Source: an uncultured Elusimicrobium sp. (GTDB lineage: Bacteria; Elusimicrobiota; Elusimicrobia; Elusimicrobiales; Elusimicrobiaceae). From it: DNA of 64,000 nucleotides. Under the pieces are notes generated by a model that saw only the letters and a program-made list of their open reading frames with translations, did no database searches and was not told where the DNA came from. A program made the translations under genes and the position numbers. This document shows positions 2,056 to 31,028 of the stretch, in pieces. The DNA is taken from positions 1 to 64,000 of the forward strand of contig CADBFX010000007.1 in assembly GCA_902794125.1 (NCBI GenBank), written 5' to 3'. Each line of letters begins with the position of its first letter. Within the stretch, counting starts at the first letter, position 1.

Positions 2056-2097
2056 AGATTTGGTATTATTATTTTATAAGCCGTTTAAGGAGAATAC

Positions 2098-2853: not shown

Positions 2854-2864
2854 TAGGATCAATC

Positions 2865-3611: not shown

Positions 3612-3618
3612 TTTTGTT

Positions 3619-5961
3619 ATGGCAGAAGAAAACGAATCCCAAAAAACAGACGCAAAAATTATTGCTTTTGCCGGGCCGAAGGAAGGCGCAGGGAAAACAA
3701 CCCTGGTGCTGAATTTGGCATTGGGGTGGGCAGGCATTCAGAAGCGCCCGGTGCTTATTGTACCGTTGGACCCACTCGCCCGCCAAGAGCATAGTTTTTA
3801 TTTGGATATTGCTAATCCCGTCAGTGTGGCCGATTTGTTGCAAGTGTTAGGGAATACCTCTATCGCGGTGGTAGGGGGGTTGTTGCGTGGTAAAATTTCC
3901 ATGTCCCAATGGGGAGTGGGTTTATTGCCGCTGGGAAATACCCGCGTGCAAGTGGCTTCCATTAGCCCGAAAATTTTAATTCCGATTTTATCCCGTCTTG
4001 CCCAAACCTTTGATATCTTTTTAGATGTAGATTCCAGTTTTCCTATGCAGGCGTTCTCGTTTGATATTGCTGACAAAATTTTCTGGGTATCCAACGCTAC
4101 GCGCACGCACATTAACTCCACCGTACAACTTTTTAACGATTACAAAGAGCAACGCTATCCGATGGACCGCGTGAGCGTGATTTGTAACGGTTATGATATG
4201 CCGGGTTCCATTCCTTACGAGGAAATGGAGCGTTTTTATGCACAATTAGGGCGTGAAGTGGATGTGTTTTTGCCGTGGGATGCCTCGGTAATGACTTCTT
4301 CTAACCAACGCGAAGTGGAAATTATTACCAATCCTCAATCGGAATGGGTAAAAGGATTGCGCTTGGTATTGGCTAAAATCCGTGATTTAAAACCGGCCCC
4401 GAAAGATTGGGAAGCGTCTGTTTCCGATGAAGAATTTACCCAAGCCGCCAAAGAAATTTGGTCGCCTATTCTGTTTGACGACGGCAAAGGCGGTGCGGTC
4501 GGCACGGACCACGTGGCCCTGGCGGAAGGGGAAGAACCCAGCAACAAAAATAAGATGTCGTTCTGGGACGATTTGAAACAAAAAATCCATAAAGAAGTGG
4601 TGCACACGCTGGAAATTGAACACATCGTTATTAGCGATGAAAGTACCGCCAGCGAGCAAACCCGCAAACGCGTGGCCGCGATTGTGGACGATATTTTACA
4701 GAAACAACCGAATTTGCAATTTTCACGTGATCAGCGCACCCGGTTTACGTCTGAATTATTAGACGAAATTTTAGGGTTAGGGCCGCTGGAAGTACTCATG
4801 AGGGACCCAGCCGTCACGGAAATCATGGTCAACGCCTTTGACCGTATCTTTATCGAACAAAAAGGTAAGTTGACCCTCACAAAATACAAATTTAGAAATA
4901 ACGAACAGGTGGTGCAGGTTATTAAACGTATTGTGGCCCCGCTTGGCCGCCGTATTGACGAATCTGTGCCGCTGGTGGACGCGCGCTTGAAAGACGGTTC
5001 CCGTGTAAACGCAATTATTGCGCCGTTGGCTGTTTCCGGCCCGACGCTTACTATCCGCCGTTTCTCCACCAAACCGTTCGGCCCGGAAGATTACTACCGT
5101 TTTGGTACAATCAGCCCGGAATGTATGGAATTTATTAAAAAATGCGTTAAGATCCGCAAGAACATTATTGTTTGCGGTGGTACCGGTACCGGTAAAACTA
5201 CGTTCCTAAACGCTATTTCCGGTTACATTGCCGATGACGAACGTATCATCACCGTAGAAGATACCGCGGAACTTCGTTTGCAACAGCCGCACTGGGTATC
5301 GCTGGAAAGCCGTCCGCCAAACGTAGAAGGAAAAGGGGCGGTAACAATTCAAGATTTAGTTAAAAACTGTTTGCGTATGCGTCCGGACCGCATTGTAGTA
5401 GGGGAGTGCCGCGGTGGCGAAGCATTGGACATGTTACAGGCCATGAACACCGGTCACGAAGGTTCTTTGACCACAATTCACGCCAACACTCCGCGCGACG
5501 GTTTATCCCGTTTGGAAGCAATGTGTATGCAGACCGGGGCCGATTTGCCGATTTTCGCTATCCGCGAAATGATTTCCTCGGCTGTAAACATGATTGTACA
5601 GTTGTCGCGTTTCTCGGACGGTTCCCGTAAAGTAACCTATATTACCGAAATGCACGGTCAAAAGGACGGGCAAATCCAATCTACCGATTTGTTCCGCTAT
5701 GTGCAGACCGGGGTAGATGAAAACGGAAAAGTGCAAGGTGTGTTTGCGCCTACCGGCAATTTGCCGACGTTTTATGAAGAATTTGCAGCTAAAGGACAGC
5801 CGGTTGATGAAATGGTATTTAAGAAAGGAGCGGTTCCGTTAGATGAAAACGGAGAGCCGGATTTAGCCGCTGTAAAGCGTTTGCAAGCCGGCAAGACGGA
5901 CACTCCACCGCCTCCTGTTCCGCCGGCTCCGAAACCGCCGCGTGCGCCGAAAGGGGCTTAA
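3619..5961 (+). CDS. cpaF: CpaE-CpaF fusion: MinD-like domain plus secretion/pilus ATPase
   Basis: 780 residues joining two proteins that are normally separate. Residues about 10-260 are a CpaE/MinD-like ParA-family domain with [10 protein letters not shown] (20-29) and later switch-like strands. Residues about 320-735 are a CpaF/TadA-type ATPase with Walker [10 protein letters not shown] (520-528), Walker [10 protein letters not shown] (about 589-597), and the His-containing [12 protein letters not shown] region. The tail is Pro-rich and probably flexible. CpaF powers Flp pilin assembly; CpaE directs the machine to a cell site. No frameshift or internal start separates the domains, so the fusion looks genuine. 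Confidence 0.9.
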
Positions 5962-5975
5962 TTGAGGTTTTGAAG

Positions 5976-7610: not shown

Positions 7611-7613
7611 TTT

Positions 7614-8504: not shown

Positions 8505-8514
8505 AGGAATAGCT

Positions 8515-16397: not shown

Positions 16398-17504
16398 ATG
16401 TGTAGCGGGCGGATGATAAATACACTTAAAAACAAAAGGGCGCAGATTCTGCTGCCCTCAGTTTTGCTTGCGCCTATTTTTATTTTGGTTATTTATTTGC
16501 TCTTTGAAACAGCCAAAGTGTCCATGACGAAAATTCGCCAGCAGTTTGCGTTGGATAACGCCGCCTATTCCCAAATGACTTCTGCCAGTTCTTATTTAAA
16601 TGCAGTGGCCATGAGTAATGGGCCGCTGGCGTACCGTGTAGTAAGTTATTATGCGGAAAAAACTCCTCCACTACAACCAAAAGAGAGTGTTGGAGGCAAT
16701 CCAATTATGATTTTTGAAATGTTTTACAAAGCGGGTGCCGTGCCAGTTATTAATACGGCCGATCAAGAAACCGGAGAAAATGCAAAACCGCCCAAGCCGG
16801 AATCGGACGATTGGGGAATTAAATACTACCCAAATACACGCCCCAGTTGGGAAAAGGAAACACCGGGGAACCCTCCGGAGGAAGAGGGTGAAGTTGTTAT
16901 GACAAGCAAAGATTTGGCGGATAAGTATCACTTTTCTACCCACTTAATTGCGGTGCCCGTTATCGTGCAGTATTTGTCCACCTATGCCCAGCTGGGTACC
17001 ATTTATGATTCCCAGGAATATGTGTATAAAGAGCTGACCAAAAATGCAAAAACATTTCGCGAAGTTTACTATGCTAACGTTAGTGATTGTAAATTATCCC
17101 AATGTGCTTCCGAAAGTGCGCGTACGATTAACCGTTTTACGGTACAAACAAAAAAGATGGAATTGGATAAAATGCGTTTTTATGTGTCGGATTCGGATGG
17201 GCCTGGTACACCGCACGGGGGAGCACATCCGGTATCTATTGGTGCTGTAGAAACTTTAAACGGTAGTAAATTATTTCAATTTGCTTATTTGGACCCTTCC
17301 AGCCGGGGGCGGCTGCGTAACATGGGGCAAGGCATTTTATTAAAGCAGCGTTTTAAATTGCCGAAAAACAATTTTAATATTAACTTGGAAAATAAATACA
17401 AACCGTACGTTCGTACGCGGGTGTCGGTAACGTGTCCGCGCTCCAATAATAATTGTGTGTGGCCTAATCCGCTCCCCAAGTACAGCGTTACGTTGGATCC
17501 TTAA
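16398..17504 (+). CDS. TadE/TadG-like membrane-anchored pilus protein
   Basis: 368 residues. The N-terminus contains KNKRAQILLPSVLLAPIFIL, a prepilin-like or TadG-like anchor in which the +5 Glu is absent. A long soluble region follows, with an acidic Pro-rich segment (KPPKPESDDWG, NPPEEEGE) and two Cys pairs near residues 229-234 and 355-361. ATG 16413 is an alternative start five codons later. Placed between two pilin-like genes, it is probably a large minor pilin or tip component. The family assignment is from shape and context only. Confidence 0.6.
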   Translation: MCSGRMINTLKNKRAQILLPSVLLAPIFILVIYLLFETAKVSMTKIRQQFALDNAAYSQMTSASSYLNAVAMSNGPLAYRVVSYYAEKTPPLQPKESVGGNPIMIFEMFYKAGAVPVINTADQETGENAKPPKPESDDWGIKYYPNTRPSWEKETPGNPPEEEGEVVMTSKDLADKYHFSTHLIAVPVIVQYLSTYAQLGTIYDSQEYVYKELTKNAKTFREVYYANVSDCKLSQCASESARTINRFTVQTKKMELDKMRFYVSDSDGPGTPHGGAHPVSIGAVETLNGSKLFQFAYLDPSSRGRLRNMGQGILLKQRFKLPKNNFNINLENKYKPYVRTRVSVTCPRSNNNCVWPNPLPKYSVTLDP

Positions 17505-18046
17505 TGCTTAACTTATCTTGTTTACGTTCCCGCAAAGGCCAGGCAACGACGGAAGTCGTGTTGCTGTTCCCGTTTTTTGTTATTTTTATTGTATTTATTA
17601 TTAAAATTTTTGGGCTTTTAGTGCTTACACAAAAAATGGAAATTGCCGGTTATTATGCGGGCCGGCGTTATCAGTTGCAGTCCCACACGACGGACACATT
17701 TGCTAACTCGTGGGATAGGCGTTACCTTCAAAAAGATATTCAAACCAAGGTGGAAAATTATTTGGGCTTTAACAACCCGGGAATGCGCAAGTTTTTAAGT
17801 TTGCAAGATTTAAAAATGACGGTAGATACCGGCAGCACGTATATTAAAATAAAAATAACGGCCCGAACTAAGCCGTTTAATATTAAATTTTTGTGTAATT
17901 ATAATAAGGACCATGTTTGCCAGAACAAAAGTAATTGTTTGCGCGGCTACTCTTTTCTGTGCGAGAAGGGGGGCGAAATTAGCGTCATTAAATACGTTGG
18001 TTTTAACGAACGCCCGTTGCCGTACTTACGCCCGGAAAGTAAGTAG
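17504..18046 (+). CDS. TadE-like pseudopilin, second copy
   Basis: 180 residues. It starts in a TAATG overlap with the preceding stop. RSRKGQATTEVVLLFPFFVI gives the TadE signature: basic leader, Gly/Gln cleavage site, Glu at +5, then one helix. The exported part has a small Cys cluster (FLCNYNKDHVCQNKSNC). It closes the second pilin set, and the promoter for the Gly-rich cluster begins 22 bases after its stop. Confidence 0.75.
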   Translation: MLNLSCLRSRKGQATTEVVLLFPFFVIFIVFIIKIFGLLVLTQKMEIAGYYAGRRYQLQSHTTDTFANSWDRRYLQKDIQTKVENYLGFNNPGMRKFLSLQDLKMTVDTGSTYIKIKITARTKPFNIKFLCNYNKDHVCQNKSNCLRGYSFLCEKGGEISVIKYVGFNERPLPYLRPESK

Positions 18047-18068: not shown

Positions 18069-18097
18069 TTGACAAACAAAGAATGGGGGCTTATACT
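18069..18097 (+). promoter_or_regulatory. Sigma70-type promoter of gene A
   Basis: TTGACA (18069-18074), a 17-base spacer and TATACT (18092-18097) form a near-consensus promoter in the gap after the pilin genes. It is the strongest promoter seen in the first 25 kb and suggests high expression of the following cluster. Confidence 0.85.
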
Positions 18098-18103
18098 TAA
18101 GAA

Positions 18104-18188
18104 GTAGGCTGTTATAACTCTGTGCTGAGCGTTCTGGTGGAACGGGTCAACAAGAGTCATTTTTATTATTCTGTAAAAGGGGTTTGAT
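18104..18188 (+). promoter_or_regulatory. Structured 5' leader of gene A, shared with gene F
   Basis: The leader contains a hairpin CGTTC/GAACG followed by AACAAGAGTCATTTTTATTAT. The second leader at 25251 has a hairpin followed by AACAGCGAAATTTTTATTAT. The similarity of position, order and sequence suggests a common control element. The ribosome site of gene A is AAAAGGGG just upstream of ATG 18189. Confidence 0.55.
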
Positions 18189-19034
18189 ATGTTCAAGTTA
18201 AAACCGGGAAATGTGTTCCAAAAGATTAACGGCATGGACCGTAAACAGGCCTATACGTGGGGCGCGGTCGTGGTCGTTGCATTTATTGCGTTGCTCACCT
18301 TGGCTTCTTATATTGGGAATGCGGACGATTCTTCCATGGCGGGGTTTGATGCGCAAGGGTACGATTTGGCGCAACTTCCGTTCGTAAACGACGAAGCGGA
18401 AGCTTATTTACTTTCCTCTAAATATCCGGATATGCAGAACAACCAATCCTCTTTGTTCTATTCTCCGCAAGAGAAAGAAGAACGCCAAGAAGCCGATGCT
18501 GAGGCAGAAGGCGGACGGGAAATGGATATAGACGGGGACGATTCGTCTTCTTCCGGGGGTGCTACTTCCGACGAGGGGGGATCTTCTTCTCGTCGTTTTG
18601 GCCGTGGTGTAGGGCGCGGTGGTAGTGCCGGAGGCGGAGCAACGTCCATTGGTCAATTAGGTTTTGCCGGAAGTGCCAAAGCAGACGGTAGCGGAAACAG
18701 TTACACATGGGGCAGCAATCCGCGCGGTGATTTTAGACCTTTCTCCGACCAAGATAAAGGTTCCGGCGGTATGGCAAGTTTGCAAAACCAGGATGCTAAA
18801 AAAGCGCTTTCTCAATTTGCCCGTGGCAGTTCCGCCGCGGCACGCTTGCGCGACAATAAAGGTGCTAACGCAAAACGTGCCATGATGGGTGGTAACATTA
18901 AAGGTGGCGAAGCCTTTGGCGATGACGGAGTAGATTTGAGCAAATTGGGGGCTTTGGCGCTGGACACCAACGCGCCGGTGCCCACTTCGCTTGACTTGAG
19001 TGATTTGAGTGATAAAGTAAAATCCAAACAATAA
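18189..19034 (+). CDS. Cluster gene A, 5' part: single-helix, acidic then Gly/Ser-rich protein
   Basis: 281 residues, not recognised. A basic tail of about 20 residues is followed by one membrane helix (about 22-42), an acidic stretch (EKEERQEADAEAEG) and a Gly/Ser/Arg-rich region (GRGVGRGGSAGGG). Then comes a segment with ARLRDNKGANAKRAMMGGN that resembles the conserved NEGARAF region of genes B and D. The reading frame ends at 19034. A different frame continues at once with coding-like sequence, and removing one A from the run at 19019-19022 would join them. So this is probably the first part of a roughly 500-residue protein. It starts the promoter-driven cluster. Confidence 0.7.
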   Translation: MFKLKPGNVFQKINGMDRKQAYTWGAVVVVAFIALLTLASYIGNADDSSMAGFDAQGYDLAQLPFVNDEAEAYLLSSKYPDMQNNQSSLFYSPQEKEERQEADAEAEGGREMDIDGDDSSSSGGATSDEGGSSSRRFGRGVGRGGSAGGGATSIGQLGFAGSAKADGSGNSYTWGSNPRGDFRPFSDQDKGSGGMASLQNQDAKKALSQFARGSSAAARLRDNKGANAKRAMMGGNIKGGEAFGDDGVDLSKLGALALDTNAPVPTSLDLSDLSDKVKSKQ

Positions 19035-19059
19035 AGACGAGCTTTCCTTTTGGGAAAAA

Positions 19060-19704
19060 TTGGGCCAGCGTTTTTTGGAAGGAATGGTGGATAAAATGGT
19101 GGATGGCCTTGGTAATTTAATGAACCAAGGGCTTGATAGTTTGTTCTCTATGGGATCTAGAAATAGTGCCTCTAGAAATTATGGGAATGAGTTTATTGAT
19201 AAAATGGGAACTGTGAATAAGGATGCTTGTAAACAGAGCTATCAGTGTATGCAAAACTTTACCTCAATGCTTGGAAGTAAAGAAAAGGCATACAACTATT
19301 TAACGTCTGATCAAGATCTGAATAGTTTTATGAAGTCCAACGATTTGAGTAAGAGTGATTTGCGAAGAAATATGAAGAGTAACGGCGGTTCTATTTCAAC
19401 GACGACCGATGAAAATGGTATGTTTATTGGGGTGACGGATCCTAACGCTACTACATATTCTTCTGGTCGTCAAAATGCACGTCGTCGAAGCACGCTGTCT
19501 GATACAGACAGATACAATGACGATGTGGACAGATATAACGAACAGGTGCGAGAATATAACCGTCGGCTTGACGAAAGCCAACGTTCTTCGAATGGCGGCG
19601 GACAGCAACGGAGTTCAGGCGGATGCGTTAGATATTCTTGTGATTTAGACTATGTTTGGAATTCTAGTACGTGTTCCTGTGAGCCGAGGTTGTATTCTTT
19701 TTAG
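19060..19704 (+). CDS. Cluster gene A, 3' part: Cys-containing domain in shifted frame
   Basis: The nominal start is TTG 19060, with no ribosome site. The open frame actually begins at 19021, where NNKDELSFWEKLGQRFLEGM reads as ordinary protein overlapping the end of gene A. The W..LGQRFLEGMVDKMVDGL stretch resembles the WGDKLLQKLFDGIL stretch of gene F, where it is continuous with the membrane-anchored half. The tail is Gly/Ser/Arg-rich and ends in a small Cys knot-like piece (GGCVRYSCDLDYVW ... TCSCEP). Best explained as the second half of gene A, separated by a +1 frameshift that is a mutation, a sequence error or programmed. Confidence 0.6.
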   Translation: MGQRFLEGMVDKMVDGLGNLMNQGLDSLFSMGSRNSASRNYGNEFIDKMGTVNKDACKQSYQCMQNFTSMLGSKEKAYNYLTSDQDLNSFMKSNDLSKSDLRRNMKSNGGSISTTTDENGMFIGVTDPNATTYSSGRQNARRRSTLSDTDRYNDDVDRYNEQVREYNRRLDESQRSSNGGGQQRSSGGCVRYSCDLDYVWNSSTCSCEPRLYSF

Positions 19705-19716
19705 TGGGAGGAATTT

Positions 19717-21374
19717 ATGAATATCTTTAAAAAACTGTTAGATAAGGCCGGTAAAATGGCTTTGTCGGGCTTGCAACTAGCAGGCCTTACGGCGGTAGTC
19801 GGGGCGGCCGGGGTAGGTGCTTGGCAGTATCTAAGTGCGCCCGCGGAAGCACCAGAGTTTAGTTTGCCGCAATATAACCCCGGTACCGTGGTACTTCTTT
19901 TGCGGCGGACGGGACAGAATCCCCTACTACGCCATCTTCTATGCGGTTTTCTACGCGTAATTTTAAACAATTAGAGCGTTCGGAAATTGCCGCCAAAGCC
20001 GCTGAAGAAATGGCTGAAAATGAATCTTATACTATCCCGGAGGCCCCGGCCTCTGAGGGAGGCGGTGCTCCTCCCACCGGTGGCGGAGCGGTGAATATGG
20101 GCGACATGGCCGAAGGTTTGGGCATGGGCGCTAACGCATTAGGAGCGGATGCTTTTAATGGGCCTGGCGGCCTGGGCGAAGGTGGCTTGGCCGGTACGAT
20201 GGCGGGTATCCAGAATATGGTATCCGGTGCCATGCAGCAAGGGCAAGGAGCCAGCGGAACCGGTGGCGGCCCGAACGGTGCACCCGGGAACGGCGACCCC
20301 GGTGCCGGGCAGGACGGCGCAGCGGGTGGACCCGGTGCGGCTGGTGGTCCTAAATTAGCTAGTGCAACCCCAGGCTGGAAGGGTGGCGGTAGTGGTTCCG
20401 GCGGTGGTGGTAGCGGGTCTTCCTTTGTATTGCAGGACAGTGGCAAGAATAGAGGTGGAGGTGCTGAGAATTTAGGCAACATTGGCGAAATGGTAGCCAA
20501 TGCCCAAAAAAGTGCCCAAGGAGCCGTGTCCGAAGCCAATATGCGGGCTCAAAAGTTTTTTGGAAACGAAGACAGATTTTCGCAAGGTCGTAACTCTATT
20601 GCATTAGATGGTAAAAACTCTAAAGAAACAAAAGAATTAGGCAACATCCGCAAACGCTCCATAGATGCGGCCAAAAATAAGTTTCGCTCTCCCAACGAAG
20701 GTGCACGTGCTTTCTTGGCCAGCAGTAATATTTCCGGCGGGCTTCGTTTTTCAGCAGACAATGTAATGACCGGGCAAGGTGCCGGGTCTAAAGATTTTGA
20801 AGCACCTTCCGTAGGGGCGATAAGCGGTATCCGATCTTGGGGTGATAATAAGTTGGATGATCTGACTGACATAGACCAACAGCGCAAACAAGACCGCAAT
20901 AAAATTAAAAAATTATTGTGGATTGCATTGCCTCTCGCATTGACATTGATTCCTCTAATTGGGGCATTTTCTACATTGGCAAGCATCGTTGCAAGTATCC
21001 CGATAATTGGGCACGCGTTATCTCTTGCGTTTTGGATAACAGCTGGCTTGTTGGCGGTTGCTGCGTTGGTGCCAACCATTATGCTATTAACTCAAAGTAT
21101 CCAATATGCCAATAAGTATGGTGGGGAAGGTATTTCCACCTGGGGTATTGCGGTATCGTCTGTGTTAACAGGAGGAATTCTGTCTTCCCTTATCCCATTT
21201 ATCGGAAACGTAGTAGCTTCCGTATCGGTGGGCGTGTGGGCCACTTTCCCGCTAATTGGTGCGGGTCTTGCGTGGGCGATTAATAGTTTTGCGGGTCAAG
21301 GGGACGAGTCAACTATTCAGCAGAACCAAGAGACATATAATTCCGATATTTTGGAAAACCCGCGTAACCAATAG
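19717..21374 (+). pseudogene. Cluster gene B: Gly-rich membrane protein interrupted by a frameshift
   Basis: A GGGAGG site precedes ATG 19717. The first frame gives a basic tail, a membrane helix (about 17-37) and PEFSLPQYNPGTV, then degenerates and stops at 19974. A second frame reads TSFAADGTESPTTPSSMRF from about 19893 and continues to 21374. Adding one G at 19890-19891 makes one protein of about 550 residues. It has a very Gly-rich middle (20050-20460), a conserved block with NEGARAFLASS and KDFEAPS also present in gene D, and three or four C-terminal helices (20915-21290). Function not recognised. A genuine mutation or a consensus error are equally possible. Confidence 0.65.
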
Positions 21375-21383
21375 GGGGATGCT

Positions 21384-21692
21384 ATGACAAAAGAAGAAAT
21401 AATAAAAATGTTGGAAGAAAAAGCCCCCTTTATTGACTGGCGCAATCCCAAGCGGCCGTCAAAAACTTGGTACGTGGTGTGGGGAATACTAACATTAGTT
21501 TGGGTGGCCGGAATATTCTATTTCCAGGCGCTTATTAACGAAGACCAACGCGCGTTGGATGCGTTGCACTTGCAACAGCAACAAAGAGAAGACCGTATCC
21601 GCCGGGCCGCCGCGTATGATAAGGCCCGTACCGAGCAACAGTTTTCTACGAATACGGTAAAAAATGCCGTAGATGCTTTAAATAAGAGGTGA
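21384..21692 (+). CDS. Cluster gene C: small single-helix membrane protein
   Basis: 102 residues, nine bases after gene B, with a GGGGG site before the ATG. An acidic N-terminal helix (EEIIKMLEEKAPFIDW) is followed by one membrane helix (about 28-47) and a charged, Gln-rich, likely helical tail (LHLQQQQREDRIRRAAAYDK). It is not recognised. Its stop overlaps the ribosome site of gene D, so the two are co-translated. Confidence 0.7.
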   Translation: MTKEEIIKMLEEKAPFIDWRNPKRPSKTWYVVWGILTLVWVAGIFYFQALINEDQRALDALHLQQQQREDRIRRAAAYDKARTEQQFSTNTVKNAVDALNKR

Positions 21693-21697
21693 ACCTT

Positions 21698-23302
21698 ATG
21701 AAATGGCTTACTATTTTAAAAAGTACCGTTGGAAAGGTCACCATGACGACCCAAAAAGCCTTGCTGATTTCGGCCGGGGTCGGAGTGGGAGCCACTTTAA
21801 TTATCCAGAACGCGGCTACCGTGCAAGCGGAAAGAGAACTGGCTGTACGTTCTGTGTCGTCTATCAGCAACCCCTACAATTATGAGGGGATGCGCCGCGG
21901 GGCGGACAATAATATGACGTCCATCAACGTAAAAGATGGTCGTAACCAAATTGCCAGTCGCGAAGAACGGGAACGGTTGGAAGGCTATCGCCGCCGTGGG
22001 TTTAGCGACGAAACCTTACGCCACATTGATAATTTAGACGCTACGGTTAGCGGTGCTTTTGGCCGCGCTAACACAATGGGCGACTCCGAGGCCCTTACCA
22101 TGGGCTCTAACGAAACGGATGAAATTCCCAGCGGCTCGGCCGGTAATTCAGGGGTTTCTTTCCGTGCGCCGGGTATAGACTTGGGCGGCGGTGAAGGAAG
22201 TAACGGAGCCGGTGGAGCTGGCCCTAGCCGCAGTCGTGCTGCCGGTAGACCCGTTGGCGAAGGCGGTTCCGGATCTGGTGCGCAACTGGCCAATGCTTCT
22301 ATGGCAAGAGCTTCCGGTACGGGTATTGGTGCTTCGGGTGCCGGGGGCGGTAGCGGAAATGAACCCCGTAGTTTAGGCCGTGGCGGAGCGGGAAGAGACG
22401 GCTATCAATTTTCGGGTGCTATGCCTAGCGGGTCCAACTTGGTTTCCGCGCGTGCAGAGGCGTTAGGAACCGGCAACGGAATGGGGAACCCTAACTTTTT
22501 GGCAAGCAGCCGCGGTTCCCGGACATATAAAGGAAGACAAACTCCCAGAGGGGACACTGAGTTAAAAGATATTACCAAACGCTCTGCCGCTGCGGCCAGA
22601 AACAGCGAGCGCTCTAACAACGAAGGCGCGCGTGCTTTTATGGCCAATTCTACTGAATCAGGTGGTATGCAATTTGAGGGAGCCACCGATGCAACTACAT
22701 CCGGCTCGGCTGATTTTGAAGCTCCCAATGCCGCCCGTTTAAAAGGGATTAAAGACTGGGGAAATACGATAGATACGGAGGCCCTGGAACGTAGCAAGAG
22801 ACGTAACGAAATTATTATGTGGTTGTTAGGAACCGTGGTGGCAACCGCTCTAGCAATTCCGTTTGGATACCATTTGATTAATAAAGGTAGAAGTTCCGGC
22901 GGTTTCTGGGGTGTTGCCATGATGATTGCCGGGTTTGTGCTTTTAGCGGCTGCCGCAGCTGTGGCAACGACGCTTATTGTTAAAGCGGCAAAATTTGCAC
23001 ACGATTATACCGGCGGAACAACATCTACTGTTTCCTATATTGTCGGCGGGGTTGCTATTGGTGCGTTAATCTTTACGGGTATTGCGGCTATGTCTAACCA
23101 ACAATCTCCCTTGCATAAGTTTATGGATAAAGCCATGGGTAAAATGCGGCACTTTATGGGAGATGCCATTAAAGGAGCGGCTGTTTCTACCGCTTTAAGT
23201 ACGGGGAAAGAAGCCCTTGCTAATGCAATGAACGATGACGGACAAGGTGCCGAGAATAATAAGCACGATAATAATAACAATGGTAGCGGCGCCAATAAGT
23301 AA
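21698..23302 (+). CDS. Cluster gene D: Gly-rich multi-helix membrane protein, paralogue of B
   Basis: ATG 21698 is chosen because AAGAGG (21684-21689) lies eight bases before it; a GTG at 21689 overlaps that site. 534 residues: membrane helix (about 20-40), a charged region (REERERLEGYRRRGFSDE), a Gly/Ser-rich region (about 130-280), a conserved block with NNEGARAFMANS and SADFEAPN closely matching gene B, and three helices in the C-terminal third. The last residues are Asn/Asp-rich. It is not recognised. The intact frame here is the best evidence that gene B was once a single frame. Confidence 0.72.
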   Translation: MKWLTILKSTVGKVTMTTQKALLISAGVGVGATLIIQNAATVQAERELAVRSVSSISNPYNYEGMRRGADNNMTSINVKDGRNQIASREERERLEGYRRRGFSDETLRHIDNLDATVSGAFGRANTMGDSEALTMGSNETDEIPSGSAGNSGVSFRAPGIDLGGGEGSNGAGGAGPSRSRAAGRPVGEGGSGSGAQLANASMARASGTGIGASGAGGGSGNEPRSLGRGGAGRDGYQFSGAMPSGSNLVSARAEALGTGNGMGNPNFLASSRGSRTYKGRQTPRGDTELKDITKRSAAAARNSERSNNEGARAFMANSTESGGMQFEGATDATTSGSADFEAPNAARLKGIKDWGNTIDTEALERSKRRNEIIMWLLGTVVATALAIPFGYHLINKGRSSGGFWGVAMMIAGFVLLAAAAAVATTLIVKAAKFAHDYTGGTTSTVSYIVGGVAIGALIFTGIAAMSNQQSPLHKFMDKAMGKMRHFMGDAIKGAAVSTALSTGKEALANAMNDDGQGAENNKHDNNNNGSGANK

Positions 23303-23310
23303 ATAATCTA

Positions 23311-23344
23311 AGTGGGAGAAATGCCCAAGGGTGTTTCTCCCACT
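23311..23344 (+). other. Intercistronic hairpin between D and E
   Basis: AGTGGGAGAAA (23311-23321) pairs perfectly with TTTCTCCCACT (23334-23344) around a 12-base loop. It is followed by ATTTTAAGAGG, so the T-tail is poor and the ribosome site of gene E stays free. It may be a partial terminator or an RNA-stability element that sets the D:E ratio. Confidence 0.75.
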
Positions 23345-23360
23345 ATTTTAAGAGGTCTTT

Positions 23361-25205
23361 ATGCCGGAAGAATTACCAACCACTCCACCTGCCCAACAAC
23401 CGGAACCAGGGGTGGAGAAAAAACGAAAAGAATCATCGCTTCTGCTGTTATGGTGGATGCGAATGCTTCTTTTTTTTCGCACTTGGTTGGGGTGGCTGAC
23501 CATTGGTTTGGTGGCCACGTTGTTAGTGGTTACTACTACGATTCCGGTCGGCCGGTTGCCTTTTTTGCGTAATATCGTGTATGCGATGGGCTATTCCAGC
23601 GAAGAAGCCGCAAATCTTACTTTCTTTAAAGCATTCTTAGGCTGGAACGAACACGCCAAAATTGCCCGCGGGGAACTGCCGGACCCGAATGCTGTTTTAG
23701 TGTTTGGCAGGGACGGTGGATTTTTAGATGCAGCCAACCGTAAGGGAGCTGCTACTTCCTCTTTGATTAATTTCCAACGGTTATATGCTGCCCAAGCCCG
23801 CCAAAACGGGAAACGCCGGGTGGATATGATTTCGGGCGTGGCGGATAATGCCCCCGGGGCGAATAAATCGCCGGATGCAATTGCTTTAAAGGGGAGTGAC
23901 GTGTCGGCCCAAACGCAGGCCAACGAAGCTGGTGTTTCCGAAGTGTTTTTTGGCGATGATTCCGGCATGATACAGCGCAACCCAAAAGATGCTTACAACT
24001 CTACTCAAAATTTAAAACGCTTGGCTTCCGCTAAAGGGATTATTGGTGGCGGTGGAACTAATACGCTTGGCTTGTTAATTGACCGTGCCGTGCGGGTAGA
24101 TTCAAACATTGATTCTATTTTGCAAGCAGTAGATTCAAGCAATTCTTTCGGCAATTTGGGCAATATCATGAAATTAGGCAGCGATAACCCCGGCCGGGAA
24201 GATTTGTATTACGCTTGGCTTTTGTCGCGTGCAGCGCGCCGTGCCCGCCAGGCCAGTTTACAAAAGAAATTAGCGTCGATGGCATATATGGGGGGCGAGT
24301 TGCCCCGTTATGTATTTGTAATGGGTAGTAGCGGCGGATTAGGTTTTAACCCGGATGAATTTGAAGCCGATATGGAACGCATGAAGGACTATTTTGAGCA
24401 GGATGAAAAGTGTGAAAAAGCAATTAACAATTCCAATACGGCAGAATACCAAGCCACTGTAAACAATATGGTAGCTTCTATTAAGCAATTAGTGACGAGC
24501 TTCTTCCCTGAAAATTGTGGAACGGTAGAAAGTGTTATTAGTTCTTTTAGAAATAATATAGGTGACATACAGGCGGCTTGTCGGTCTATGCAAGCCGCTT
24601 ATCAAAACATCGGTAAAGAATGTGGCGCCGTGGTATCGGTGGATACTTCCCAGTGTTATTCGCCTGCATGGCTACCCCAGGTTAATAATTTTAATGATTA
24701 CTGTATAGAAACTTTTAGCTATTATCAACAATTAATAGACGAGGCAATAGCGACGATAGCTGCCAAAACAGATGAAATTTCCACTTTGAAAGCCACAATA
24801 ACCACACTTGAAGGAAGACTAGCTAATTTAAATACTCAATTGGCGGCGTGTGAAGATGATGCCTGCCGTGCCGGCGTGCAAAGCCAAATTAATGCAGTTA
24901 CAGCTGATAAAGAGCAAGCCGAAAAAGATAAGAAGCAGGCAGAAGATGATAAAGCTCAAGCCGAAAAAGATAAAAAGAAAGCCGAAGAAGATAAAGAGAA
25001 CGCTAAAAACAATAACTGGACGGATAGCCACAAAGCCGGCAAAACGGATTTGGCCTCTAACAGCGAAGTACAAAGCACGATTGGAAACACTTACTATGAA
25101 GGAAATTTTGATGTGGCCAACGCGGGTGGAGGCGAGCGTGGCCAGTTAAGAGGCGGCTATTTCCCGACGATGACCGGTTTCGGTAGAAAGGGGCGCGACT
25201 ATTAA
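23361..25205 (+). CDS. Cluster gene E: membrane-anchored protein with coiled-coil tail
   Basis: 614 residues with an AAGAGG site before the ATG. A Pro-rich tail precedes a hydrophobic region (about 26-62) holding one or two helices. The next 300 residues look globular (VGRLPFLRNIVYAMGYSSEE, ELPRYVFVMGSS) and carry several Cys (KCEKAINN, ENCGTV, AACRSM, KECGAV). A long coiled coil follows, including five exact-register 7-residue repeats DKxxAEx near 516-550. It ends with a Gly-rich FPTMTGFGRKGRDY. It is not recognised. The coiled coil suggests oligomerisation or a spacer across the periplasm. Confidence 0.7.
   Translation: MPEELPTTPPAQQPEPGVEKKRKESSLLLLWWMRMLLFFRTWLGWLTIGLVATLLVVTTTIPVGRLPFLRNIVYAMGYSSEEAANLTFFKAFLGWNEHAKIARGELPDPNAVLVFGRDGGFLDAANRKGAATSSLINFQRLYAAQARQNGKRRVDMISGVADNAPGANKSPDAIALKGSDVSAQTQANEAGVSEVFFGDDSGMIQRNPKDAYNSTQNLKRLASAKGIIGGGGTNTLGLLIDRAVRVDSNIDSILQAVDSSNSFGNLGNIMKLGSDNPGREDLYYAWLLSRAARRARQASLQKKLASMAYMGGELPRYVFVMGSSGGLGFNPDEFEADMERMKDYFEQDEKCEKAINNSNTAEYQATVNNMVASIKQLVTSFFPENCGTVESVISSFRNNIGDIQAACRSMQAAYQNIGKECGAVVSVDTSQCYSPAWLPQVNNFNDYCIETFSYYQQLIDEAIATIAAKTDEISTLKATITTLEGRLANLNTQLAACEDDACRAGVQSQINAVTADKEQAEKDKKQAEDDKAQAEKDKKKAEEDKENAKNNNWTDSHKAGKTDLASNSEVQSTIGNTYYEGNFDVANAGGGERGQLRGGYFPTMTGFGRKGRDY
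24906..25010 (+). repeat. Five 21-bp repeats coding a heptad coiled coil
   Basis: Five consecutive 21-base units encode DKEQAEK, DKKQAED, DKAQAEK, DKKKAEE and DKENAKN inside gene E. The units differ at several bases, so the repeat is old or under selection for protein rather than DNA identity. Confidence 0.85.
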
Positions 25206-25222
25206 AATTAAAAAATTACCCC

Positions 25223-25250
25223 TTGAAAATATGGCATTTATTAGTATAAT
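25223..25250 (+). promoter_or_regulatory. Sigma70-type promoter of gene F
   Basis: TTGAAA (25223-25228), a 16-base spacer and TATAAT (25245-25250), beginning 18 bases after the gene E stop. It gives gene F its own transcript with a leader of roughly 165 bases. Confidence 0.8.
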
Positions 25251-25420
25251 AGAAGTAAGGTAGTGTCAGTACATAAGTTGTTACGGAGTGGGGGACCATC
25301 TCCGAACAGCGAAATTTTTATTATGTAGTTGTACGTTTTTCAGTGGGAAAGTTGCGCTGCGAGGCAACCTCTTCCCCGGGGATAACCCCAACAGCAGTTT
25401 TATTTTTACAGGAGGCTCTT
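25251..25420 (+). promoter_or_regulatory. Long structured 5' leader of gene F
   Basis: No open frame with a plausible start explains this stretch. It contains a hairpin with CGGAGTGG and CCATCTCCG around a GGGA loop, followed by AACAGCGAAATTTTTATTAT as in the gene A leader. Two smaller stems follow: GTTGC/GCAAC, and GGGG/CCCC around ATAA. A clean AGGAGG (25410-25415) precedes ATG 25421. It does not match a riboswitch class that I recognise. Confidence 0.55.
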
Positions 25421-28400
25421 ATGCCAGAGGAAAAGAAAGAAAACAAGGCTACTCCTAACTTGGCACCTTCCGCAGGAGGGAAAAAGAAGGAAGCCTTTAC
25501 CTTTAGCGATAAGATTAAGAACAGCAAACAAGCGAGTTCTAAATCTTTTGCCAATCGTGCTTCCTCCAAAATTGGGAGTGACGGCAAACCGCGTCAAACG
25601 CTTTTTGAGCGTACTAAACGGGATGCACCGTTCTTTATTGCGGCTTTAGTGGCACTTTTGTTATTACCGTTTTTATACAAGTACAGCGGTAATGTAAACG
25701 AAGAACCCACTATGGTTACCCCCGGGGGAACAGATACAATTTTTGACCCGGATGCTATGCGTTCCGGCTTTGACTTTACCGGCGACCCCGAACAAGTGGT
25801 TGCCTTGCAGTCCGGCCGTGATTCCATAGATCTTATTTTGGGGCTGAAATCTAAAAACGAAGAAGAGTCCGATTCTTCTTCGTTAGATGAATTATATCGC
25901 AGTGGATTTGATGATTCTTCTGTCGCTACTTCGGCTTCTACCGAAATTGGTGATGAAGAAAATAACACCACCAACATCTACCGCTATCGCAAAAATGCCA
26001 AACCGGCTACGCGTGCGGCTTTCCGCCGTGCGGCCACCAAGCTTAACCGCTTAGGCTCAGCTGGTGCGGCAAACCGCAGCGGGAGTAGATTAGGCGTAGG
26101 CATGTGGGGGGGCGGTTTGAAAACGGCGGCCAAAAAAGTCCGCGGTGAAACGCCTCAATCTGCTCCGAAACCGGTATCTTTGCAACCGTTGCAAGCGGCT
26201 GGGAAGCCTTCCCGCTCGTACTTTGGTAACAATGCGGGGGCGGAAGCTCGCCGTTCGCGCGATGCTATGTCTAAATCCAACGCGCTTCAGGCCTTGAATG
26301 ATGCCCAAATGCGCCCGGTGGACCCCGGCAAGATTGGGGGTATCTTTGGCGGCGATTTTGGTGGCCCGGGCGGCGGTAACGGTAAATTGGACCGTGCCTT
26401 CACCTTTAATGGTAAAGAACCCTGGTGGTGGGATTTGATGAAAACTCGTTCCCAAATGGAATGGGAAAAGAAATTCAACCGCAAGTGGAACTGGATTGAA
26501 TGGGGCGACAAATTACTGCAAAAATTATTTGACGGCATTTTGTCCTGTGTGCTCACCGGTACGGATGATTGGTCTATGGGCCGGATGTTCGGTGCTAAAG
26601 AAGGCTCCGGTAAAGCGGCCAAGTGTCTGAAATTTACAAAAGAAGCTTGGGAACAATGTAGTGAATGTTTAAAATATGGGCCTTTTGGTAAAAAATCTTG
26701 CGTAGGTATGTATCCAAGTGTAGATTCTCCGTGGCAAGATGGAGCTACTGCCGAAACGAACTTGGGCTTCTTCGGTTCCCGGTTGGATTGTTTGACCAAT
26801 GGTATCTTTGGTGCGCGCAAAAACCGCAAAGCAGGCGAGGGCGTTGTGTCCGAGGCGAACGATTGTAACTCATTCTACTTAGATGGTAGATATCGTGCCA
26901 CGGTAAGAGGTAAATACACCTTATTCCATTATGTGGTGGGTGTTCGCGAGCAAGATCTGGGGCAATATAACCGGGAAAACTCTGCCGATAAACGCAAAGA
27001 GTATTTAGTCGTTGGTTATATCGGCCGCGGTGGAGATTTTGCCGTTGACCCGAATGACTTTTCCCAACGGATTAACGAAAAAACATTTATCCCGCTTTTT
27101 ATTGAGAGCGTTGCTGTTAAGAATAGCAAACTGAAAGAGAAATGCGAAAGCGACGATGATATGTATTGCGTGCACGACCGGAAACAATCAGGCGTTTCTA
27201 ATCGGGTTGCTTCTGGTAAAGCCACTATTGAGAGCGATGATTTGGAAGGCATGTTGGCTCAGCTGGTCACGCCGTCCGGCAAAAGAAGTTCTAAGGCCAG
27301 CGCTACTGTACTTAAATACAACGACCTTCTTGCCAAATTGAGAAAGGGTGGCATTATGGTCAGCAATACCACTTATACAGCAACAGCAGGAGAGGAAGTT
27401 TCTACTCCTATATTATCTGCTAAAGGTGGTAAACAAGGCAAAGGTTGGGTGACAGGTGCCCGTTGTGCCTATCCGTTAGCGTTTGCAACGTGCCATAATA
27501 ACGGTGCTTTGGTAGCTAAAGCGGCCGGTGGAGAAACAAAAGCCGGTATGCCTGCGGCGTTTATTACAATTCCCAATGCGGTACGGATGAAAGATAAAAT
27601 TAACAACCAATTCATGGTTGTGTACCGCATCCAAGGGGAAGATAACACAGATGCTACCAGCATGACGGTACAAACCGATAAGGCTAATAGCCGTGCATTC
27701 TTTGCTAACGTGCATGCTTCTAACACGGGCTATCCGAACGATGCCCAGATTGTCAATGACGGAGGTTTAGATTTTTCTAATGATGATATCAAGTACACGT
27801 TGGCCGTAACGGGCCGCGGGAAGGAAATGTTGGAAAAAATGAACGCTTCCGCAGCTAATAGTGAACGCCGTGCCATTGTAACGTGGGAAATCCGTCAATG
27901 TTACGACTATGTTACTCCGTGGGCCGGAGGCCGTGCAATTTTTGACGGTGCTTGCGGCCGCCCAGTGCAAAGGGATGAAAAGGGTAACGTAAAAGAGGGC
28001 GTTGTAGCTAGCTCCATCCCGGGTACGGTAGTCAGTTCCGCTACTTGTGTGTACTACGATGGGGATGATTCTATTAACCCGTATATCCCCGTTTGTAGAG
28101 ATGGCGAAAAACAGTTCAATCCTAACCCGAAAGTAGAAGGGCAATGCCAGAAAGTGCGTGTTTGCCAAAATGACGCTTGGGGTGCTTGGCAGAATAATCC
28201 GGATGACCCGGATTGTACACAACGATGCCGCGATGGGGAAAAACAATTCGATCCCGATCCGAAAGTTGCGGGGCAATGCCAAAAAATACGCGTTTGCCAA
28301 AATGGACAGTGGAATGGCTGGCAAAACAATCCGGACGATCCGGATTGCAAGACAGCGCCAGTCCCGCCGTCAACGGTGCGTTTCTATCCGCGTGTAAAAA

Positions 28401-29269
28401 AGATAACTGATAAGCCGGATATTTTAAAACCGGGTCCGCGCCCTGGGAAAGATGAGAACGGTAATCCCAAATGGAGCGACTGTAAATTAACGGTAGATGA
28501 AACGTTACTATTGCCCAAAGAACAAGAAACGAAGGATTATTTCAAGGCTGCCAAAGCCAAGTTTGATAACGCCAACAAAGACGCCAAAGTAACGTTGGAA
28601 TATCAAGAAGACCAATTAACGGTAGCCAACTTGGTGGATGCTATTATGATAGATCCGGGTAACGGAACGGTTCCTGCCAATACGGTTTGTCTGTTAGGTA
28701 AAACGATTGGTGCTGCCGCCCGGGACCCGCAAGCCGATACGTTTGACAACCTGTTCGGTGCGTTCTTAGCGTATATGAATAATGACTCGGCTTCGTTCCC
28801 GAGTAAAAAGACTTACAATAAGGACGGAGTGCCTATCACCGATAGACGTTTCTTACCTAATTCGGGATACTGGTGGGGCGGTTATGTCTGGAAGGGAGAC
28901 CGTGAACCTTATGAGAAGCAACTCAAAGATAGCGGTATTTGGACAACGTTCCCATTGGCCGAGTTAAATAGAACGCCCTTAGAAAAACAAGGGAATCTAA
29001 TGAAAAACAAGGATGATGAAGCAAACCGGAAGAAATATCATGATGAAATTTATCCGGACTTAATGAAACGGAATCCTTGTACCTACCAAGTAGGAAAGAA
29101 AATAACGCAAGCCAAAGTATTGGAATATGTTGACTTGTTGTGTAAGAATGGGGAAAGAACTAAGCCCAAAGCGTGGCATCCATATAAGGCCTATGGAAAT
29201 CCTCAACATAGTAATAACACGCATCACCAACAAGAACATGGCCAAGGAAATCATCCAACAACCAACTAA
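25421..29269 (+). CDS. Cluster gene F: 1282-residue membrane-anchored, Cys-repeat protein
   Basis: ATG 25421 follows AGGAGG at 25410-25415. A basic cytoplasmic tail of about 68 residues leads to one helix (about 70-87), then an acidic/Ser-rich linker and a Gly/Arg-rich stretch with AAFRRAATKLNRLG. A Trp-rich region follows (EPWWWDLMKTR, WEKKFNRKWNWIEWGDKLL). The next roughly 500 residues look globular, with paired Cys (SCVLTG, CLKF, QCSECLKYG). Two 44-residue repeats starting CRDGEKQF, each with four Cys, come next, then a C-terminal domain with Trp/Tyr/Gly (SGYWWGGYVW) and a His/Gln/Asn-rich end. The function is not recognised. The layout suggests a large envelope or surface protein stabilised by disulfides. 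It is the largest gene in the window. Confidence 0.75.
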   Translation: MPEEKKENKATPNLAPSAGGKKKEAFTFSDKIKNSKQASSKSFANRASSKIGSDGKPRQTLFERTKRDAPFFIAALVALLLLPFLYKYSGNVNEEPTMVTPGGTDTIFDPDAMRSGFDFTGDPEQVVALQSGRDSIDLILGLKSKNEEESDSSSLDELYRSGFDDSSVATSASTEIGDEENNTTNIYRYRKNAKPATRAAFRRAATKLNRLGSAGAANRSGSRLGVGMWGGGLKTAAKKVRGETPQSAPKPVSLQPLQAAGKPSRSYFGNNAGAEARRSRDAMSKSNALQALNDAQMRPVDPGKIGGIFGGDFGGPGGGNGKLDRAFTFNGKEPWWWDLMKTRSQMEWEKKFNRKWNWIEWGDKLLQKLFDGILSCVLTGTDDWSMGRMFGAKEGSGKAAKCLKFTKEAWEQCSECLKYGPFGKKSCVGMYPSVDSPWQDGATAETNLGFFGSRLDCLTNGIFGARKNRKAGEGVVSEANDCNSFYLDGRYRATVRGKYTLFHYVVGVREQDLGQYNRENSADKRKEYLVVGYIGRGGDFAVDPNDFSQRINEKTFIPLFIESVAVKNSKLKEKCESDDDMYCVHDRKQSGVSNRVASGKATIESDDLEGMLAQLVTPSGKRSSKASATVLKYNDLLAKLRKGGIMVSNTTYTATAGEEVSTPILSAKGGKQGKGWVTGARCAYPLAFATCHNNGALVAKAAGGETKAGMPAAFITIPNAVRMKDKINNQFMVVYRIQGEDNTDATSMTVQTDKANSRAFFANVHASNTGYPNDAQIVNDGGLDFSNDDIKYTLAVTGRGKEMLEKMNASAANSERRAIVTWEIRQCYDYVTPWAGGRAIFDGACGRPVQRDEKGNVKEGVVASSIPGTVVSSATCVYYDGDDSINPYIPVCRDGEKQFNPNPKVEGQCQKVRVCQNDAWGAWQNNPDDPDCTQRCRDGEKQFDPDPKVAGQCQKIRVCQNGQWNGWQNNPDDPDCKTAPVPPSTVRFYPRVKKITDKPDILKPGPRPGKDENGNPKWSDCKLTVDETLLLPKEQETKDYFKAAKAKFDNANKDAKVTLEYQEDQLTVANLVDAIMIDPGNGTVPANTVCLLGKTIGAAARDPQADTFDNLFGAFLAYMNNDSASFPSKKTYNKDGVPITDRRFLPNSGYWWGGYVWKGDREPYEKQLKDSGIWTTFPLAELNRTPLEKQGNLMKNKDDEANRKKYHDEIYPDLMKRNPCTYQVGKKITQAKVLEYVDLLCKNGERTKPKAWHPYKAYGNPQHSNNTHHQQEHGQGNHPTTN
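28094..28357 (+). repeat. Two 132-bp tandem repeats in gene F
   Basis: Units at 28094-28225 and 28226-28357 encode two 44-residue copies with the plan CRDGEKQF, GQCQK, RVCQN, W..WQNNPDDPDC. Each has four Cys. The protein copies are nearly identical while the DNA differs at many third positions, indicating an older duplication kept by selection. Confidence 0.88.
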
Positions 29270-29275
29270 ATAAAG

Positions 29276-29310
29276 AATCCCCGGGAATTTATTCCCGGGG
29301 ATTTTTCTTT
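29276..29310 (+). terminator. Rho-independent terminator after gene F
   Basis: AATCCCCGGGAA (29276-29287) pairs with TTCCCGGGGATT (29292-29303) around TTTA, followed by TTTTCTTT. A strong terminator that closes the Gly-rich cluster. Confidence 0.92.
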
Positions 29311-29336
29311 ACCCGTTTCTTTCTTTTTTCTATCAT
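29308..29336 (+). promoter_or_regulatory. Leaderless-type promoter of TPR gene at 29343
   Basis: TTTACC (29308-29313), 17 bases, TATCAT (29331-29336), then six bases to ATG 29343. No ribosome site is present. Transcription would start at or next to the initiation codon. Confidence 0.6.
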
Positions 29337-29342
29337 ATACAT

Positions 29343-31028
29343 ATGACGGAAAAACGGTTTTTTATTCTTGTTTTGTGTATTACTGTCTTATCGGCAGCGC
29401 TTCCGGCGCAGGCAGGGTTCCCGTTTTCTTTCCGCAAGCCCGCTATCAGGACCGATTATTCCCAAACCGTGTGGGACCAAATTATGCAGGAGCAAGCCGT
29501 TTCGGATATCCGCCGCGGTATGGGCGAAATGGCTCAGGCCCAATATTCTGCCGCCTCTAATAGTTTTGCGAAAGCCGTTATTAAAAATGCCAAAAATCCT
29601 TTAGGATATTTGTTGTTAGGAGCTTCGCTTTATTGGGCGGGGAAAGTGGATGATGCGATTAGCGAGTATAAAGAAGCCCTGATACTAGACCCCAATAACG
29701 CCATGGCTTACCAACTTTTAGGTATTGCCGCCGGTTGGAAAGGCGATGTAACTACGGCGCAAAATTATTTTTTAAAAGCCAACGCATTGGACCCAAACAA
29801 AGCCGATACACATATGAATTTGGGCTCTACATACGCTGTACAACATAATTTGGATAAAGCGTTGGAGCATTTCCGCCGCTCGACAGAACTTGCCCCGCGG
29901 GAGCCATTGTATCACTATCAATTAGGGACGCTTTACGAAGCCCTAGGGCGCGATGAACAAGCGGAAGAATCTTTTAAAAGAGCACTTCATTATTTTTCCG
30001 CCTACGAAGACGCACAACTAAGTTTAGGAGCGTTGTACGAAAAAATGGGGCAACCCGAACAGGCTCTCAAATTTTATAAAAAAGCTGTTAAAACAAAACC
30101 CGGCGATTATGTGGCGCGCCTTCGGTATGCGTTTTTACTCGTGCGCCAAGGGCAAGAACAAAAAGCACGCGAAGTGATAGAGGAGTCCTTCTCTATTGCT
30201 AAATTTAACGACGAAGGCCTTGCCTTAAATGCGGTTTATCGCGCCAGCGGGCGCACGGCTCAGGCCTTTGAAAAGCAAATTAATGAATTTGCGGAAAGTT
30301 TAGGTAAAGTATCTCCCGCTAAACCTGTCCAAATAGAAGTAGCGCTAGAGTACGACCCCGAAACTCCGCCCGCTCCGCCCAGCAAAGGCAAAGGGAACTC
30401 TTTTGAGCAAGTTTACCAACAAATGCGCGCCACCGGCGTCGATTTGCCAGGCCAATTAAATAAACGTACGTTCCAGCGTACATTTACGTTGCCCGCGACG
30501 GACCGGACTTCCCGTGAACAACAAATCAACGATTTTATTTCTGGCGTGCGCCAGGCCGTGGCGCAGGGGGAAGATAAATATCAAGTCAATTTATCACTCC
30601 AAGGTCGTACAGCCGATTACGCCGCCCCGGGAGCCATTACCCAAACAAACACCACCACCCCCAAAGCGGTGTACGACCCGCGGGTCGTCGGGAATGATAT
30701 GGGGTTGTGGGTTATGGGGCGCAGTTGGCTTAAATTTGTAGATGAGACTGCGGAAGATTTGCAGGAATATACATGCCTGCCCGGCAATATGTGTTTGCTA
30801 CTTAAGGGGCTATCTTCTTTGGCCCGCGGGGAAGCCGGTTCGGCGCAGGTTGTTTTTGAACAGGCAAGCGAGTCGGCCCCAAAAGATGTGTTACCGCTAT
30901 TGGGCCGGGGTACGGCGGCTGTCATTGCCGGCGAGGACGAATTGGCGCGTCGGTACTACGAGCAGGCACTCACACTGCAACCCGGTAATAAAACTGCATC
31001 GCGGAATTTAAAAATATTGGCGGAATAA
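29343..31028 (+). CDS. Exported TPR-repeat protein
   Basis: 561 residues. A signal peptide (about 1-24, ending PAQA) is followed by about seven TPR units between residues 55 and 290 (GYLLLGASLYWAGKVDDAIS, AYQLLGIAAGWKGDVTTAQN, THMNLGSTYAVQHNLDKALE and so on), a Pro-rich linker, a less regular middle with LPGNMCLLLKG, and a final TPR pair. TPR arrays bind partner proteins, here probably in the periplasm. It ends flush against rsmA (TAA then ATG), so the two genes share a transcript. Confidence 0.78.
   Translation: MTEKRFFILVLCITVLSAALPAQAGFPFSFRKPAIRTDYSQTVWDQIMQEQAVSDIRRGMGEMAQAQYSAASNSFAKAVIKNAKNPLGYLLLGASLYWAGKVDDAISEYKEALILDPNNAMAYQLLGIAAGWKGDVTTAQNYFLKANALDPNKADTHMNLGSTYAVQHNLDKALEHFRRSTELAPREPLYHYQLGTLYEALGRDEQAEESFKRALHYFSAYEDAQLSLGALYEKMGQPEQALKFYKKAVKTKPGDYVARLRYAFLLVRQGQEQKAREVIEESFSIAKFNDEGLALNAVYRASGRTAQAFEKQINEFAESLGKVSPAKPVQIEVALEYDPETPPAPPSKGKGNSFEQVYQQMRATGVDLPGQLNKRTFQRTFTLPATDRTSREQQINDFISGVRQAVAQGEDKYQVNLSLQGRTADYAAPGAITQTNTTTPKAVYDPRVVGNDMGLWVMGRSWLKFVDETAEDLQEYTCLPGNMCLLLKGLSSLARGEAGSAQVVFEQASESAPKDVLPLLGRGTAAVIAGEDELARRYYEQALTLQPGNKTASRNLKILAE

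What the first reader, a model, noticed from the sequence alone, without database searches (positions are those of the whole stretch)
18069..29310. Unrecognised six-gene cluster of Gly-rich, membrane-anchored proteins next to a Tad pilus locus
Seen: six genes in a row (A-F). A, B, D, E and F each start with a short basic tail and a membrane helix. A, B and D share Gly/Ser-rich middles and a block related to NEGARAF...DFEAP. A and F share a W...LLQKLFDGIL-like stretch. E has a heptad coiled coil; F has 1282 residues and Cys repeats. None matches a family I know. Inference: they form a co-expressed envelope-spanning or surface assembly, possibly a partner or cargo of the adjacent Tad machine.
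Basis: partly seen in the sequence, partly recalled or inferred. Interest (0 to 1): 0.82.

Follow-up and report, generated by a model that had tools for sequence, protein, structure and literature searches.

The report
RNA-led envelope operon of gut Elusimicrobia
A six-gene operon of membrane-anchored proteins with no known relatives, found only in one family of animal-gut bacteria and usually beside their Tad pilus genes, is headed by a previously unlisted structured RNA that stays with these genes even where the operon has broken up.

Summary
The cluster is real, conserved and larger than described. Genes A-F recur in order across Elusimicrobiaceae (F in 81 of 90 family genomes, none in 24 sister-family genomes). 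No Pfam, NCBIfam, PDB-sequence or fold match was found. The unit has clear ends: a near-consensus sigma-70 promoter (18069-18097) conserved in 36 of 37 relatives, and a terminator after F (29276-29303) conserved in 59 of 64.

Between promoter and A lies a structured RNA hairpin (18117-18157) with near-invariant internal-loop bases, strong covariation (97% of cells paired; slid controls 35-49%) and a U-tract. Rfam has no match. It occurs in 81 of 341 phylum genomes, all in this family, once or twice each. Every copy with a recognised downstream gene precedes A (52) or F (3). In the single-contig genome G090 (probably Elusimicrobium minutum) the genes are scattered; A and F each keep a copy.

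Tad linkage is usual (37 of 41 loci with A) but separable. The likeliest reading is an inner-membrane-anchored envelope assembly serving the Tad machine, with leader-controlled expression; the Tad partnership is inferred. The claimed A/F helix is not supported.

The parts
18069..18097 (+). Promoter TTGACA-N17-TATACT of the A-F operon
   Evidence: 11 of 12 consensus. TTGACA-N17-TATACT or TA[AG]ACT upstream of A in 36 of 37 Tad-adjacent relatives and also upstream of Tad-less clusters and standalone F.
18113..18171 (+). Structured leader RNA (model R1); hairpin 18117-18157, U-tract 18160-18164
   Evidence: CM score 59.3 bits; covariation; no Rfam match; family-restricted, upstream of A or F only. 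This copy lacks one base of the conserved GUGUUUGAG loop strand.
18189..19034 (+). Gene A, 5' part (281 aa): signal anchor, Gly/Ser linker, conserved N-terminal domain
   Evidence: relatives have one ORF; frame break near 19022-19030.
19027..19704 (+). Gene A, 3' part in another frame, variable C-terminal region
   Evidence: tblastn of relatives' A in frame 2.
19717..21374 (+). Gene B: N-terminal helix, Gly-rich middle, C-terminal membrane helices; frameshifted near 19885-19914
   Evidence: Relatives' B match 19717-19914 in frame 2 and the rest in frame 1; profile A5.
21384..21692 (+). Gene C: small signal-anchor protein with a charged helical tail
   Evidence: Syntenic in relatives.
21689..23302 (+). 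Gene D: paralog of B
   Evidence: hhalign B-D 100%, E 5e-47; no further paralog outside the cluster in five genomes.
23361..25205 (+). Gene E: signal anchor, conserved PVGxIPxLRN block, helical domain with six invariant Cys
   Evidence: AlphaFold2 all-helical, pLDDT 70; no fold match.
25421..29269 (+). Gene F: near-invariant cytosolic FTFSDKIK...PKQTLFERTKRD segment, signal anchor, PWWWD block, Cys-rich outer domains
   Evidence: identity 77-87% in cytosolic plus membrane part, 17-31% in outer domains.
29276..29303 (.). Bidirectional terminator hairpin ending the A-F unit
   Evidence: terminator after F in 59 of 64 relatives versus 1/48 after A, 0/42 after B, 1/54 after E.
29343..31028 (+). 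TPR protein with a signal peptide, associated with E
   Evidence: stays next to E where the cluster is dispersed.
16398..18046 (+). TadG-like and TadE-like genes at the end of the Tad locus
   Evidence: Weak TadE hits in this window; conserved position in relatives and order mates.
3619..5961 (+). TadZ-TadA fusion of the adjacent Tad locus (1570-10026)
   Evidence: CbiA plus T2SSE domains; RcpC, secretin and T2SSF neighbours; conserved across the order.

Best explanation
A-F is one transcription unit of Elusimicrobiaceae that builds an inner-membrane-anchored assembly reaching into or across the periplasm, most likely serving the neighbouring Tad pilus machine. Shown by sequence: one promoter, one leader RNA, A-B-C-D-E-F, one terminator; signal anchors in all six proteins; a near-invariant cytosolic and membrane segment in F with fast-changing, Cys-rich outer domains. 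Inferred: the conserved cytosolic tails dock on a conserved cytosolic partner (TadZ-TadA is the best candidate), the outer parts extend through the periplasm, and the Gly/Ser stretches act as linkers. Also inferred: the leader hairpin plus U-tract acts as an attenuator whose conserved internal loops are read by a protein or ligand, so expression is decided just after transcription starts. Because the same leader also stands before F where F is alone, A and F are co-regulated parts of one system.
For: Synteny in most relatives; tadE directly upstream of A in 37 of 41 loci. Promoter conserved; terminator after F in 59 of 64. RNA: 18 pairs, 97.0% of cells paired against 35-49% when slid, 150 double-change cells against 40 in shuffles; U-tract in 50 of 52 copies against 10% of random 14-mers; single copy in 34 of 37 genomes of the genus survey; only f1 positive among 341 phylum genomes; downstream gene A 52 times, F 3 times. 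In G090 the model located an A homolog (E 1e-62) at a separate site. Conservation gradient of F; invariant Cys in E and F; secretin, RcpC, TadA/B/C and TadE adjacent.
Against: No protein-level evidence of contact with Tad. The cluster or single genes sit away from Tad in several genomes, and Tad is present in sister-family genomes without it. The own promoter shows that expression is separable from Tad. The terminator scan did not flag the leader hairpin in the window or L115, and its outer stem is A/U-rich, so attenuation is unproven. The window's own copy folds no better than shuffles (z -0.33).
Confidence: 0.42

Rival explanations
1. A-F forms its own surface or envelope structure, independent of Tad; the neighbourhood is historical.
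For: Own promoter and terminator. Intact clusters away from Tad in L077, L082, L093, L128. In G090 F, A plus a D-like gene, E-TPR and Tad lie at separate sites yet all are kept.
Against: Tad adjacency is the rule, including the deep-branching genera g14 and g16.
Confidence: 0.33
2. A-F proteins are substrates of the Tad machine (minor pilin-like or tip components).
For: B and D have a short basic leader with an invariant Gly before the hydrophobic stretch; they follow the TadG/TadE minor-pilin-like genes.
Against: No Glu5 after that Gly in B or D, no pilin-type site in A, C, E or F, and no TadE-family hit in A-F.
Confidence: 0.1
3. The leader is only an mRNA-stabilising 5' hairpin or weak constitutive terminator, not a regulatory receptor (a rival for the RNA part alone).
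For: A hairpin near a strong promoter, followed by a U-tract.
Against: Internal-loop bases are near-invariant across genera while the apical stem is free to change in sequence and length, which suggests specific recognition.
Confidence: 0.25

Closest known systems
Tad (tight adherence) pilus systems
   Same: The adjacent locus has TadZ-TadA, TadB, TadC, RcpC, secretin and TadE-like genes; Tad in Elusimicrobia is already reported (PMC6668835).
   Different: A-F match none of the Tad components; they are restricted to one family, have their own promoter and can be separated from Tad.
Periplasm-spanning alignment subcomplexes of type IV filaments (PilN/PilO/PilP, GspC/L/M; from memory)
   Same: Several bitopic inner-membrane proteins with conserved cytosolic N-terminal peptides and periplasmic parts.
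   Different: No sequence or fold match; much larger, Gly/Ser-rich and Cys-rich proteins; two members have extra C-terminal membrane helices.
Structured leader RNAs (riboswitches, attenuators) in Rfam
   Same: Single hairpin with conserved internal loops between promoter and start codon, U-tract after the stem.
   Different: No Rfam 15 family matches; found only upstream of A and F.

Membership tests
Tad pilus component families (TadA/B/C/D/E/G/V/Z, RcpA/B/C) | Profile match of A-F to a Tad family | tested here: not met
   Pfam and NCBIfam: none for A-F
Tad pilus component families (TadA/B/C/D/E/G/V/Z, RcpA/B/C) | Fixed genomic linkage with the Tad locus | tested here: inconclusive
   37 of 41 loci linked; dispersed in G090 and some g12 genomes
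Type IV pilin / pseudopilin | Prepilin peptidase site with Gly-1 and Glu+5 | tested here: not met
   B and D: invariant Gly but no Glu5; A, C, E, F: no such site (alignments and sequences)
Any family with solved structure | Sequence-profile or fold match of F or E | tested here: not met
   nothing at E <= 0.001
Known Rfam RNA families | Covariance-model match of the leader | tested here: not met
Structured cis-regulatory leader RNA (as a kind) | Covarying stem with conserved loop bases, upstream of specific genes | tested here: met
Structured cis-regulatory leader RNA (as a kind) | Regulation by ligand or protein shown | not testable with these tools
   Needs a reporter or in-line probing
Periplasmic alignment complex (PilMNOP-like) | Physical link between cytosolic ATPase and secretin | not testable with these tools
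   Position and topology only

The most novel reading that the evidence does not exclude
A-F is a new kind of bacterial envelope machine, unrelated to known secretion or pilus parts, under a dedicated new riboswitch-like RNA class whose only job is to switch this machine.
Probability: 0.28. Interest if true: 0.9.

Novelty: new variant of a known kind. Interest (0 to 1): 0.7.

Why it matters
Six protein families without known relatives are nearly universal in a family of gut bacteria that includes rumen, poultry and termite lineages. The RNA leader ties them into one regulon even where the genes have scattered, so members of the system can be found from the RNA alone, as it did for A in G090. 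If G090 is E. minutum, as its size suggests, a cultured strain exists for tests. The steep conservation gradient of F (constant inside, changing outside) marks its outer part as a likely contact point with host or neighbours.

Tried and rejected
Ancestral A in the sister family f2: its Gly/Ser-rich gene after tadE (A8) is present in most f2 genomes but shows no demonstrable homology to A. Giant membrane-anchored ORFs near f2 Tad loci as F counterparts: no match. Rfam His_leader hits at 29221-29376 are the terminator hairpin and are below gathering. Foldseek of F and E against PDB and of F against viral models: nothing significant; E matches generic coiled coils and helical proteins. F in viral contigs: none. 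A/F shared helix: not supported. One large Python alignment timed out and was redone in a lighter form. A Pfam scan of all members of the F alignment was over the size limit and was not repeated. Papers: no description of A-F or of the RNA found.

Full report
What is in the window. Upstream is a Tad locus: TadE-like 1570, RcpC 2098, secretin 2865, a TadZ-TadA fusion 3619, TadB 5970, TadC 7614, a TPR gene, sensor and response-regulator genes, and TadG/TadE-like genes at 16398 and 17504. A-F follow on the same strand. None of A-F matches Pfam or NCBIfam.

Corrections to the observation. C also has a signal anchor. In relatives A is a single ORF of about 380-605 aa; here it is split by a one-base shift near 19022-19030. 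B is also frameshifted near 19885-19914. The leader RNA described below lacks one base in its conserved loop. Three indels within 1.8 kb, not seen in the relatives, suggest assembly error or decay in this genome. B and D are paralogs, A is related to D, and A and F share a weaker relation over membrane helix and linker; reversed alignments gave nothing in each case.

Distribution. F is in 35 of 36 same-genus relatives and 0 of 24 sister-family genomes, and in 81 of 90 family genomes. A scan of 84,980 species genomes with F gave 71 loci. All of those titled by lineage are Elusimicrobia from animal guts; a few are titled only 'uncultured bacterium'. Viral contigs gave none. TadA is in all 61 relatives tested and in 27 of 28 family genomes, so Tad is the older and wider system.

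Linkage with Tad. A directly follows tadE in 37 of 41 loci where this can be judged. The g14 genome and, by architecture, the g16 genome have Gly/Ser-rich genes and an E-like gene at the same place. Exceptions exist: L077, L082, L093 and L128 carry the cluster away from Tad. In the single-contig genome G090, F, A plus a D-like gene, E plus the TPR gene, and Tad occupy separate sites. G090 has 1,643,562 bases, which from memory is the size of the E. minutum genome; a paper search did not confirm this.

Boundaries of the unit. TTGACA-N17-TATACT lies at 18069-18097. TTGACA-N17 with TATACT or TA[AG]ACT recurs upstream of A in 36 of 37 Tad-adjacent relatives, and also in clusters away from Tad and before standalone F in G090 and L115. 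A strong terminator hairpin follows F at 29276-29303 and in 59 of 64 relatives, against 1/48 after A, 0/42 after B and 1/54 after E; D shows 14/50. A second promoter-like site lies before F (25223-25250), so F may also be started on its own.

The leader RNA. Between promoter and A lies a hairpin of consensus [AG]CUC[UC]GUGUUUGAG - variable stem - GGUCA[AGU]CA[AG]GAG[UC], followed by a U-tract in 50 of 52 copies against 10% in random local 14-mers. Copies were gathered by promoter and sequence motif at the two ends, not by pairing of the variable stem. On the 52-row alignment 97.0% of cells pair, against 35-49% when partners are slid; 150 cells changed on both sides against 40 in shuffles. Examples: the outer stem changes from ACUCU/AGAGU to GCUCC/GGAGC, and the inner stem varies freely. 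The seven relatives' copies that were folded do better than shuffles (z -1.9 to -4.1), the window's own copy does not (z -0.33). No Rfam family matches.

Regulon. A covariance model finds the window copy at 59.3 bits, one copy in 34 of 37 genus genomes, and none in 24 sister-family genomes. Over 341 phylum genomes there are 81 positives, all in family f1 and in four genera. Of copies whose downstream gene could be read and recognised, 52 precede A and 3 precede F (a few sites counted twice through overlapping loci); in four no gene was assigned, at least two of these at the edge of the stretch held. In G090 the model pointed to a site at 711 kb where an A homolog (E 1e-62) and a D-like gene follow; F at 646 kb has its own copy. 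Genomes of g15 and g16 lack it.

Protein features. F's cytosolic and membrane part is 77-87% identical between relatives, its outer domains 17-31%. E has six and F seven near-invariant Cys columns, which fits an oxidising compartment. AlphaFold2 models of F (residues 215-1283) and E reach pLDDT 70, with a well-predicted C-terminal domain in F. Neither has a significant PDB match, and F has no viral match.

Interpretation. Shown: a family-restricted operon with its own promoter, leader RNA and terminator; signal-anchored proteins; the same leader before A and before F. Inferred: an inner-membrane-anchored assembly extending into the periplasm and serving Tad, with an attenuator-type leader. The main rival is an independent envelope structure. 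The Tad link rests on position, and the leader's mode of action on anatomy alone.

Noticed in passing
window 18113-19914: Genes A and B each carry a one-base frameshift and the leader RNA a one-base loop deletion; none of the relatives examined shows them. Assembly error or decay.
   Followed up: partly
window 3619-5961: TadZ-like (CbiA/ParA) and TadA domains are fused in one protein, and the fusion is conserved across the order.
   Followed up: partly
L045:1028-2350, L053:490-1740 and L130-L159: In sister family f2 a different Gly/Ser-rich, N-anchored protein stands directly after tadE in several loci; nearly universal in f2, no demonstrable homology to A.
   Followed up: yes
L166-L167 (G171, genus g16): Tad is followed by several large proteins with 26-32% Gly+Ser and C-terminal membrane helices, then an E-like and an F-like gene, without the leader RNA.
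   Followed up: partly
L056:1-9672, L058:1-8107: Giant membrane-anchored repeat proteins (over 2700 aa) downstream of Tad loci in two f2 genomes; not related to F.
   Followed up: partly
window 29343-31790: The TPR gene and rsmA travel with E even where the cluster is dispersed.
   Followed up: partly
window 11459-12406: A protein with a weak DsbA-like match sits in the Tad locus; possible disulfide helper for the Cys-rich E and F.
   Followed up: no
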